A stretch of DNA of 6,225 bases. Source: a bacterium (GTDB lineage: Bacteria; 4484-113; JALSIF01). The stretch lies in contig JALSIF010000023.1 in the NCBI GenBank assembly GCA_026981635.1, positions 1 to 6,225 of the forward strand. The letters run 5' to 3'. The translations under genes and the position numbers were made by a program. The notes under the pieces are model-generated. The model saw only the letters and a list, made by a program, of their open reading frames with translations, was not told the origin of the DNA and did no database searches. This document shows, in pieces, positions 1,031-6,225 of the stretch. Each line of letters begins with the position of its first letter. Position 1 is the stretch's first letter.

Positions 1031-2143
1031 ATGGCAGAGGAAGAGGCTGAGCTAGGTAGGTGGAATAGCGTGGGGAGAGTTGGAGGAGAGGGTGCTCTTA
1101 CCCACCCTGACTGTGCTGCCCTCTGTGCGGTGGTGCTTCGGCCCTACCTGGAAGAGCTCCATCCCGGCCAGCGGGGTAAGTTCCTGGACTATCTGTGCCC
1201 CGATCCTGAGGTGGCCGCCCGCTTCATTGATCAGGTCAAGACCAGCCACGAACTACGCCAGCAGGCCCTGGATCGCCTGGCCGGTCTGCTCATGTGTGAG
1301 GCGGGCCTCTGCCCGGAGGAGGAGACCGAGATCTGGTGGTGGGAGGTAATTGCTGAGCAGGCCGCCCGCCTCCTCGTCCCCGACGGGCTGGAAGGCTACG
1401 GTCTGGCTCCCCGGGTGCGCAACCCCACTCGCTGGAACTTCCTTGTTCTTACCGCCGGCTACTTTGCCCTGGTGAGGGCGCTGATTGCCCGCATGCGGGA
1501 CTATCCCCCCAAGCTGGGCGGGGAGCGCCGGGTGAGGGAGATCGCCCGCCGCTGCCACGTCTATGTGCGCTCGCCGGCGGCGGCCAATCTGGTTCGGCTG
1601 CTCACCCTGGCCGCCCTGGTTCAACCCATCACCCGTCCCGCCCTCCGCCGCACCCTGGCTCTGCGTGCCTTTGGCAACCTGAAAGAGCAGATCGGGGTGT
1701 GGCTGCCCAGCGAACCACCCCCCGAGCCGGTCAGTCACCGCTATGACCTGGTGCTGGTGGATCGCTGGTTCTGCCTCCAGGGCGTGGGGGTGGAAATGCT
1801 TGCCCAGCTGGTGGCGGAGGGGGGAGCGGGGCTGATTATCTGTGATCGGGTGGGAGAATCCCTTGCTGACCTCGCCGCTCCCGGCGGTGAGGGAAACGGG
1901 TTTGCCGAGCGGATCATCTCCTTTCAGTTGGTGCGCGCTCCCCTGCGCTCCCTAAACGACCTCGGCCTCATCCTCCTGGGAAGTGAGAGGGTGGGGGAGA
2001 TGGACCCCGAGGTCAGTGCCACCGTCTGGGAGGTGCGCCGCCAGGGTGAGCGGGGTGGGCGGTTGGTGGAGATTCGCTCGCAGAAGCTTTCCCGCCATGG
2101 TCTCAGCGAGGGCCTACGGGAGCTGATTTCGGCACCGGGCTAG
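1031..2143 (+). CDS. Uncharacterised protein, 370 residues
   Basis: I do not recognise this protein. The frame stays open for 370 codons with strong third-position G/C bias, so it is a real gene. The N-terminal two-thirds is rich in Leu, Ala and Arg and probably helical, with a Trp cluster (EIWWWEVI, about 100-107) and two moderately hydrophobic stretches (about 136-150 and 186-200) that are too interrupted by Arg to be sure membrane spans. The C-terminal part has an alternating hydrophobic strand, YDLVLVDRW (about 238-246), then GGAGLIICDRVGE (264-276). That spacing recalls strands 4 and 5 of a Rossmann-like methyltransferase, but I see no glycine-rich motif I, so this is only a hint. No signal peptide is visible. 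The ATG at 1031 has no Shine-Dalgarno sequence. An in-frame GTG at 1070 preceded by AGGTAGGTGG is a plausible alternative start. It stands alone, between a divergent operon and the citrate synthase gene with its own promoter. Confidence 0.75.
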   Translation: MAEEEAELGRWNSVGRVGGEGALTHPDCAALCAVVLRPYLEELHPGQRGKFLDYLCPDPEVAARFIDQVKTSHELRQQALDRLAGLLMCEAGLCPEEETEIWWWEVIAEQAARLLVPDGLEGYGLAPRVRNPTRWNFLVLTAGYFALVRALIARMRDYPPKLGGERRVREIARRCHVYVRSPAAANLVRLLTLAALVQPITRPALRRTLALRAFGNLKEQIGVWLPSEPPPEPVSHRYDLVLVDRWFCLQGVGVEMLAQLVAEGGAGLIICDRVGESLADLAAPGGEGNGFAERIISFQLVRAPLRSLNDLGLILLGSERVGEMDPEVSATVWEVRRQGERGGRLVEIRSQKLSRHGLSEGLRELISAPG

Positions 2144-4021: not shown

Positions 4022-5677
<1,656 letters not shown>

Positions 5678-5718
5678 TCAATCTGCTAAGATAGTTTCCC
5701 CCGTAAACCCCCCCCAAG

Positions 5719-5760
5719 GCGGGGCCTCCTAACCCCCCGGGAGGCCCCGCTCCCTTTTTT
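5719..5760 (+). terminator. Strong intrinsic terminator of the groESL operon
   Basis: A perfect 11-bp stem, GCGGGGCCTCC (5719-5729) pairing with GGAGGCCCCGC (5740-5750), closes a ten-base loop and is followed after TCCC by six T residues (5755-5760). It lies 41 bases after the groEL stop. Confidence 0.9.
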
Positions 5761-5769
5761 ATCCCCCCA

Positions 5770-5862
5770 CCAGACGGGGGCCAAAAAGGAGCCAGGAGGG
5801 GCGGCCAAAATCACCCCTCGGGCGGCCAGAGGGGCCAAAAAGGGGCCGTTTTTGGCCCCTGG
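5770..5862. repeat. Degenerate repeats of a CCAG..GGGGCCAAAAA unit
   Basis: Direct copies begin at 5770, 5792 and 5826, and an inverted copy occupies 5849-5862. The best pair is GGGGCCAAAAAGGAGCC (5777-5793) and GGGGCCAAAAAGGGGCC (5831-5847), 16 of 17 identical, each preceded by CCAGA. The copy at 5792 is diverged (CCAGGAGGGGCGGCCAAAA). The third direct copy and the inverted copy make a perfect 12-bp hairpin, AGGGGCCAAAAA (5830-5841) with its complement at 5849-5860. No gene lies here. Open frames across it are short and do not resemble protein sequence. Confidence 0.6.
5837..5860 (-). terminator. Possible minus-strand intrinsic terminator within the repeats
   Basis: Read on the minus strand from 5860, AGGGGCC-AAAAAC-GGCCCCT forms a 7-bp hairpin immediately followed by TTTT (5840-5837). 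It competes with the 12-bp hairpin formed by the flanking repeat copies. It could stop leftward transcription entering groEL, but no leftward gene is visible to its right inside the window, so this is only a possibility. Confidence 0.3.
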
Positions 5863-5886
5863 CTCTATCAATTTTTTGTCCACAAA

Positions 5887-5933
5887 ATATCAACATATCC
5901 ATATTTTCTGGTGTATTCTGGTCCTGTTGATAT
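5887..5933. promoter_or_regulatory. Dyad in an A+T-rich island upstream of the RNA promoter
   Basis: ATATCAACA (5887-5895) and TGTTGATAT (5925-5933) are a perfect 9-bp inverted repeat separated by 29 bases. A second TGTTGA follows at 5935-5940, and TTCTGGT is repeated ten bases apart (5906-5912 and 5916-5922) between the arms. Only 29 of the 90 bases in 5881-5970 are G or C, in sharp contrast to the G+C-rich genes. It could be an UP element or a regulator-binding region for the promoter at 5974. Confidence 0.35.
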
Positions 5934-5973
5934 GTGTTGAGAAAAAAAGTTTGGAGAATTTTGCCAAAAGGTC

Positions 5974-6003
5974 TTGACAAGGCATTGAGGGGTGTGGTAG
6001 AAA
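5974..6003 (+). promoter_or_regulatory. Promoter of the candidate structured RNA
   Basis: A perfect -35 box TTGACA (5974-5979) and TAGAAA (5998-6003, four of six matches to TATAAT) are 18 bases apart. An A+T-rich tract lies directly upstream. The predicted start, seven bases past the -10 box, is 6010, which is the first base of the 5' strand of the pseudoknot. That agreement was not used to choose the promoter. Confidence 0.6.
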
Positions 6004-6009
6004 TAGGGT

Positions 6010-6225
6010 GGCACGCCAAGGGTGGTGAGGTGAGCTACTGGGATATCCCCGGCGTGCCGAGGGGACCCAGTAGCGAGGGCAGAGGCACCGACCACCCGCC
6101 GAGAGGGGATCTGGGTCGGATCCCTCTACGGAGGGAAGCGGTCCAGGTCCTGGGGGAAGCTCCCTAAGGAGCCAACCCCAAGGGAGGGCGATCCTTCGGG
6201 AGAGCCCTGCTGAGGGGAAGGTTCC
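6010..6225 (+). ncRNA. Candidate structured non-coding RNA with a 5' pseudoknot, incomplete at the right edge
   Basis: I do not recognise this RNA. A long imperfect stem forms from GGGTGGT (6020-6026) with ACCACCC (6091-6097), GGTG (6029-6032) with CACC (6086-6089), GCTACTGGG (6034-6042) with CCCAGTAGC (6066-6074), and TCCCC (6046-6050) with GGGGA (6061-6065) after an ATA bulge. Its ten-base loop begins with GGCGTGCC (6051-6058), the exact complement of the predicted 5' end GGCACGCC (6010-6017), making a pseudoknot. Downstream hairpins: TCCCTC-TACG-GAGGGA (6121-6136, a UNCG loop), GCTCC-CTAA-GGAGC (6159-6172) inside GGGG/CCCC, and AGGGC-GA-TCC-TTCG-GGA-GA-GCCCT (6185-6208), which has a UUCG loop and tandem G-A/A-G opposed bases. 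No convincing gene overlaps it. It may be a free-standing RNA, or a long leader or riboswitch for a gene beyond the window. Confidence 0.6.

What the first reader, a model, noticed from the sequence alone, without database searches (positions are those of the whole stretch)
6010..6225. Unrecognised structured RNA whose 5' end pairs with a hairpin loop
Four nested stem segments (7, 4, 9 and 5 bp) present a ten-base loop, of which eight bases are perfectly complementary to the predicted first eight transcribed bases. Perfect 8- and 9-bp complements crossing each other in under 70 bases, followed by three more compact hairpins, two with UNCG tetraloops, are hard to explain as chance or coding sequence. 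I find none of the sequence hallmarks of RNase P RNA, tmRNA, SRP RNA or 6S RNA. It could be a new RNA class or a leader controlling the next gene.
Basis: partly seen in the sequence, partly recalled or inferred. Interest (0 to 1): 0.75.

Follow-up and report, generated by a model that had tools for sequence, protein, structure and literature searches.

The report
Orphan structured RNA with sequestered 5' end
Just past the groEL gene, a short bacterial contig ends inside what looks like the gene for an intricately folded RNA that matches no catalogued RNA family and has no relative in any collection searched, so it is probably a real but lineage-specific RNA of unknown job.

Summary
Window 6010-6225 (+) folds far better than dinucleotide shuffles (z -5.2; best of 84 windows on the contig). 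The four stems, the ten-base loop and its 8-nt complement at the predicted first base are all present. Such a complement falls in a hairpin loop in 0 of 2000 shuffles; two C(UNCG)G tetraloops (0 of 1000) and four all-purine 2x2 loops (2 of 1000) add support. Codon-position GC is flat, so it is not coding. A TTGACA-18-TAGAAA promoter would start transcription at 6010.

Rfam gives nothing even at E<=10; RNase P, tmRNA and SRP RNA lie elsewhere in the genome. No homologue was found, so covariation is untested and no family can be defined. The contig ends at 6225, hiding the 3' end and any downstream gene.

Best reading: a discrete structured RNA whose 5' end is buried by pairing with its own hairpin loop. 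Crude geometry says this cannot form in cis on a straight stem; it needs a sharp bend at an 11-nt bulge, opening of the lower stems, or a dimer. Rivals: leader of the unseen next gene, mobile-element RNA, rRNA leader (disfavoured). An orphan candidate, not yet a class.

The parts
5974..6003 (+). Predicted sigma-70-type promoter: TTGACA (5974-5979), 18-nt spacer ending TGTGG, TAGAAA (5998-6003); predicted +1 at about 6010
   Evidence: Sequence. Perfect -35, 4/6 -10, so it fails the strict consensus scan, which wants T at position 6. A 29-nt block of UP element plus -35 recurs at 90% identity on contig C46, upstream of an unrelated gene.
6010..6225 (+). Structured RNA, 3' end cut off by the contig end
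   Evidence: z -5.2 to -5.3, best of 84 windows; flat codon-position GC; UNCG and purine-loop statistics
6010..6017 (+). P1 5' strand GGCACGCC at the predicted 5' end
   Evidence: Perfect 8-bp complement of 6051-6058, duplex -16.0 kcal/mol; 0 of 2000 shuffles
6051..6058 (+). P1 3' strand GGCGTGCC, in the 10-nt hairpin loop 6051-6060
6020..6026 (+). Stem a 5' strand (pairs with 6091-6097), 7 bp
   Evidence: Mean pair probability 0.98
6091..6097 (+). Stem a 3' strand
6029..6032 (+). Stem b 5' strand (pairs with 6086-6089), 4 bp
   Evidence: Mean pair probability 0.82
6086..6089 (+). Stem b 3' strand
6034..6042 (+). Stem c 5' strand GCTACTGGG (pairs with 6066-6074), 9 bp
   Evidence: Mean pair probability 1.0; perfect inverted repeat
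6066..6074 (+). Stem c 3' strand CCCAGTAGC
6046..6050 (+). Stem d 5' strand TCCCC (pairs with 6061-6065), 5 bp, closes the 10-nt loop
   Evidence: Mean pair probability 0.25 in the nested ensemble, competing with a register that uses loop bases; forms when the loop is held open for P1
6061..6065 (+). Stem d 3' strand GGGGA
6075..6085 (+). 11-nt one-sided bulge GAGGGCAGAGG, the likely hinge
   Evidence: Unpaired in the fold. The poses that close the linker best have the axes folded back to about 140-165 degrees here
6106..6151 (+). Domain 2 hairpin: 13 bp, GA/AG 2x2 loop, 6 bp, C(UACG)G tetraloop
   Evidence: Mean pair probabilities 0.96 and 1.0
6152..6164 (+). Weak 5-bp hairpin
   Evidence: Mean pair probability 0.30
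6168..6225 (+). Domain 4 long hairpin with AA/AA, AA/GA and GA/GA 2x2 loops and C(UUCG)G tetraloop; reaches the last base of the contig
   Evidence: All helices mean p 1.0

Best explanation
A discrete noncoding RNA gene. RNA polymerase starts at about 6010 from its own sigma-70-type promoter and makes an RNA of at least 216 nt. The 5' domain is a long interrupted stem whose hairpin loop captures the RNA's own first 6-8 bases; the stem folds back at the 11-nt purine bulge (6075-6085), or the pairing is made between two copies. The buried 5' end would resist RppH/RNase E-type 5'-dependent decay. The two rigid hairpins, capped by UNCG loops and carrying purine 2x2 loops (probable sheared G-A stacks), form a compact, long-lived scaffold, probably for a protein or for self-association. 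Shown here: sequence features, fold statistics, non-coding composition, absence from Rfam. Inferred: transcription, the start point, formation of P1, stability and scaffold role.
For: Fold z -5.3, unique on the contig and + strand-biased. P1 complement 0/2000 shuffles. UNCG 0/1000 and purine 2x2 loops 2/1000. Codon-position GC flat (0.61/0.72/0.69 against 0.64/0.38/0.90 in groEL). No Pfam hit in the overlapping frames tested. Promoter elements place +1 at about 6010, where the P1 strand begins. groEL is closed off by a strong terminator at 5718-5751, about 260 nt before 6010. No Rfam match at E<=10 on this strand except background. Pairing P1 (-16.0 kcal/mol) outweighs the 3.8 kcal/mol lost by giving up the competing pairs.
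Against: No homologue in the sequences searched, so no covariation. No transcription data. The 3' end is missing, so discrete RNA and mRNA leader cannot be told apart. The -10 element is only 4/6. Straight coaxial stacking would leave about 69 A for a 2-nt linker, so P1 is not guaranteed in cis.
Confidence: 0.5

Rival explanations
1. A cis-regulatory 5' leader (riboswitch-like, protein-binding or attenuator) of a gene just beyond the contig end; P1 and the competing pairing (6010-6012/6098-6100) would be alternative states.
For: Mutually competing pairings exist. The next gene is unseen. A strong promoter followed by a long structured region suits a leader.
Against: No Rfam leader or riboswitch matches. 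At least 216 nt without a terminator/antiterminator pair is long for a leader. Two rigid UNCG-capped hairpins look like static architecture.
Confidence: 0.22
2. RNA component of a mobile or defence element (IscB/IsrB omega RNA, retron msr-msd, or the 5' part of an intron) whose protein lies beyond the contig end.
For: Contig breaks often fall at such elements; ornate RNAs of 200-350 nt occur there; narrow distribution.
Against: Single copy in the genome. No HEARO, group I/II intron or other Rfam match. No intron 5' motif GUGYG at the start. No phage, plasmid or viral-contig relative.
Confidence: 0.13
3. Leader of an rRNA operon: 16S is missing from this assembly and could follow the contig end.
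For: No 16S in the genome assembly. Promoter style resembles class rRNA promoters, TTGACA-N17-TA.....
Against: In three class relatives a boxA-like CTTTGAAAGC or CCTTGAAAGCTGG lies about 25-50 nt after the predicted start and 16S follows within about 120-145 nt (read from the sequences); here 216 nt contain no such element (best 8-mer has 3 mismatches).
Confidence: 0.05
4. A fold that is strong by chance or from GC-rich composition, not a functional RNA.
For: No conservation; single genome; GC-rich region.
Against: z -5.3 against dinucleotide shuffles, first among 84 windows, strand bias, UNCG, purine-loop and P1 statistics.
Confidence: 0.1

Closest known systems
raiA motif RNA (monomeric 205-nt bacterial ncRNA; size and monomer state from PMC12286853)
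   Same: Similar size; compact, intricate bacterial ncRNA; not protein-coding
   Different: No Rfam match at E<=10; no homologue in any clade searched
OLE, ROOL, GOLLD ornate RNAs (PMC12286853)
   Same: Ornate, with many loop contacts; kissing loops join copies into oligomers, a possible model for 5' end/loop pairing in trans
   Different: Larger, conserved families; no Rfam match here
H-type pseudoknots (as in SAM-II, preQ1 and S4 leaders; own knowledge)
   Same: The crossing topology: the first strand pairs into the loop of the next stem
   Different: The second stem here has 25 bp in four segments with a 2-nt first linker, which a straight H-type stack does not allow
HDV-like nested double pseudoknot ribozymes (own knowledge)
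   Same: The 5' end is a P1 strand that pairs inside P2
   Different: No P3 hairpin between P2 and P1', only GA where P4 should be; no Rfam match

Membership tests
Any Rfam 15 family | Covariance-model score at the gathering threshold | tested here: not met
   No hit over 6010-6225 on the + strand at E<=10
RNase P RNA (RF00010) | CM match; normally one per genome | tested here: not met
   The genome's RNase P RNA is at C306:4849-5202, 258.6 bits
tmRNA (RF00023) | CM match, tRNA-like ends and tag ORF | tested here: not met
   tmRNA is at C299:7413-7781, 101 bits; ARAGORN finds none in the window
SRP RNA (RF00169) | CM match of the S domain | tested here: not met
   SRP RNA is at C158:7989-8084, 57.1 bits
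6S RNA (RF00013) | CM match; single long hairpin with central bubble | tested here: not met
   No match; the fold is multi-domain. Whether 6S lies elsewhere in the genome was not searched.
rRNA operon leader of this class | boxA-like TTGAAAGC soon after the start, then 16S | tested here: not met
   Element present in three class relatives, absent in 6010-6225; adjacency to 16S is not testable
HDV-like ribozyme | P3 between P2 and P1'; P4 between P1' and P2'; active-site C | tested here: not met
   P1' follows stem d directly and only GA separates it from the 3' strand
A new RNA class | Several homologues with covarying stems | tested here: inconclusive
   No homologue in 385 genomes with CM R1, 10 class genomes with CM R2, phages and plasmids, 80 groEL loci; the models were built from a single sequence
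Discrete ncRNA | Own promoter, own terminator, transcript seen | not testable with these tools
   Promoter predicted; 3' end off the contig; no RNA data

The most novel reading that the evidence does not exclude
A new class of compact structured RNA in a sparsely sampled bacterial phylum, in which the transcript's own first eight bases dock into a hairpin loop through a hinge-folded stem (or join two copies), a way of sealing the 5' end that I know from no catalogued RNA.
Probability: 0.3. Interest if true: 0.7.

Novelty: new variant of a known kind. Interest (0 to 1): 0.45.

Why it matters
If transcribed, this is an uncatalogued structured RNA from a deep lineage with very few genomes. Its fold makes a sharp, testable prediction: the 5' end is sealed by pairing with its own hairpin loop, either by a hinge or by dimerisation. 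It also shows that single-sequence statistics (UNCG caps, purine 2x2 loops, shuffle tests) can flag orphan RNAs that comparative methods miss for want of relatives.

Tried and rejected
Rfam at permissive thresholds: only background hits. blastn in 60 genomes: short chance matches; three class-relative hits were read and none shows the RNA's stems (at least two look like coding sequence). The C46 hit is a shared promoter block, not a copy. Single-sequence CMs R1 (144 nt) and R2 (216 nt): only the window itself. Phages and plasmids by distant blastn and exact motif scans of viral contigs: nothing; six 16-mer matches carry no significant model match. groEL downstream regions of class relatives show no counterpart. 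T-box: AGGGTGGCAC at 6005-6014 resembles the T-box core (own knowledge), but there is no Rfam T-box match and the promoter lies directly upstream, leaving no room for stem I; rejected. A first geometric model had the strand polarity reversed; it was corrected and is not relied on. 'of' cannot take a locus, and the phylum of G010 held one genome, so broader genome sets were not searched.

Full report
What was examined. The window is the whole of contig C23 (6225 bases) of an 85%-complete, 1.75 Mb, 317-contig assembly. Only nine other genomes of its class are held, and no other class of its phylum turned up. The contig order is an LpxB-like fragment, a hexapeptide-repeat protein, a 370-aa ORF without a Pfam match, citrate synthase, groES and groEL (4025-5677) (citrate synthase, groES and groEL named from the translations), then a strong terminator (5718-5751), a GC-poor stretch (5880-6005, 37% GC) and the finding (68% GC). 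The contig stops at 6225, inside the structured region.

The observation. Against dinucleotide-preserving shuffles the region's z-score is -5.29 with 0 of 200 as good. In a scan of 84 windows on both strands of the contig it ranks first (-5.2), and the + strand is 22 kcal/mol better than the - strand. Three tests independent of total energy agree: an 8-nt 5' complement inside a hairpin loop occurs in 0 of 2000 shuffles; two C(UNCG)G tetraloops in 0 of 1000; four all-purine 2x2 internal loops in 2 of 1000. GC by codon position is flat in all frames and the two overlapping ORFs tested have no Pfam match, so it is not coding sequence.

Promoter. TTGACA (5974-5979), 18 nt, TAGAAA (5998-6003) with TGTGG before it puts +1 at about 6010, where the P1 strand begins. 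The -10 is imperfect, so the consensus scan does not list it. The upstream block with the -35 recurs on C46 (90% over 29 nt), which supports its being a promoter sequence of this genome.

What it is not. Rfam 15 has no match on this strand even at E<=10. RNase P RNA, tmRNA and SRP RNA are at C306, C299 and C158. The 16S gene is missing from the assembly, so an rRNA leader had to be considered. In three class relatives the rRNA leader carries a boxA-like TTGAAAGC about 25-50 nt after the predicted start and reaches 16S within about 120-145 nt; 216 nt here hold nothing similar. The topology does not fit HDV-like ribozymes (no P3, no P4).

Homologues. None was found: blastn in 60 genomes, CM R1 in 385 genomes with stricter filters, CM R2 in all ten class genomes, phages and plasmids, viral contigs by motif, groEL flanks in 80 genomes and in class relatives. 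The models rest on one sequence, so distant relatives could be missed.

Geometry of the 5' pairing. Only two bases (AA, 6018-6019) join the P1 strand to the bottom of a stem of 25 pairs, while its partner lies in the loop at the top. On ideal A-form helices, a straight stack leaves about 69 A for that linker. If the upper arm folds back at the 11-nt bulge 6075-6085 (axes about 140-165 degrees in the best poses), a small fraction of sampled poses close the linker. With stem d intact, 6-7 of the 8 loop pairs fit (a crude phosphate-only model). So P1 in cis implies a hinge, or opening of stems a and b; otherwise it joins two molecules, or is a folding intermediate. Energetically, P1 (-16.0) outweighs the 3.8 kcal/mol of the competing pairs, leaving room for a pseudoknot penalty.

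Mechanism. The best-supported reading is a discrete, promoter-driven structured RNA whose 5' end is sealed by P1 and whose two UNCG-capped hairpins form a rigid scaffold. The sealing would protect against 5'-dependent decay (RppH/RNase E pathway; own knowledge); the scaffold role is inference. raiA shows that an RNA of this size can be a compact monomer, and OLE/ROOL/GOLLD show that loop pairings can join copies (PMC12286853). Long GC-rich structured intergenic regions are a recognised source of new bacterial RNAs (PMC8723152 and PMC8632094, abstracts).

Verdict. The structure is real as sequence, very likely RNA-level, and uncatalogued. Function, full length and class status are open. Novelty is filed as a new variant of a known kind (a structured bacterial RNA), since 'new class' needs relatives that could not be found.

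Noticed in passing
window 5872-5895 / 5925-5948: Imperfect 24-nt inverted repeat (core ATATCAACA / TGTTGATAT) in the AT-rich stretch just upstream of the promoter; possible regulator site.
   Followed up: no
window 5777-5793 and 5831-5847: Direct repeats GGGGCCAAAAAGGRGCC within a nest of inverted repeats (5772-5864), probably a second terminator cluster.
   Followed up: no
window 1031-2143: 370-aa ORF without a Pfam match at E<=0.001.
   Followed up: partly
G000:C46:2446-2474 (L033): Near-copy of the UP/-35 block, followed by TAGAGTACTCTA-type repeats and a pair of related membrane-protein-like ORFs; looks like a regulated promoter.
   Followed up: partly
G000 whole assembly: No 16S rRNA match in the assembly, so its rRNA operon is unbinned or unassembled.
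   Followed up: partly
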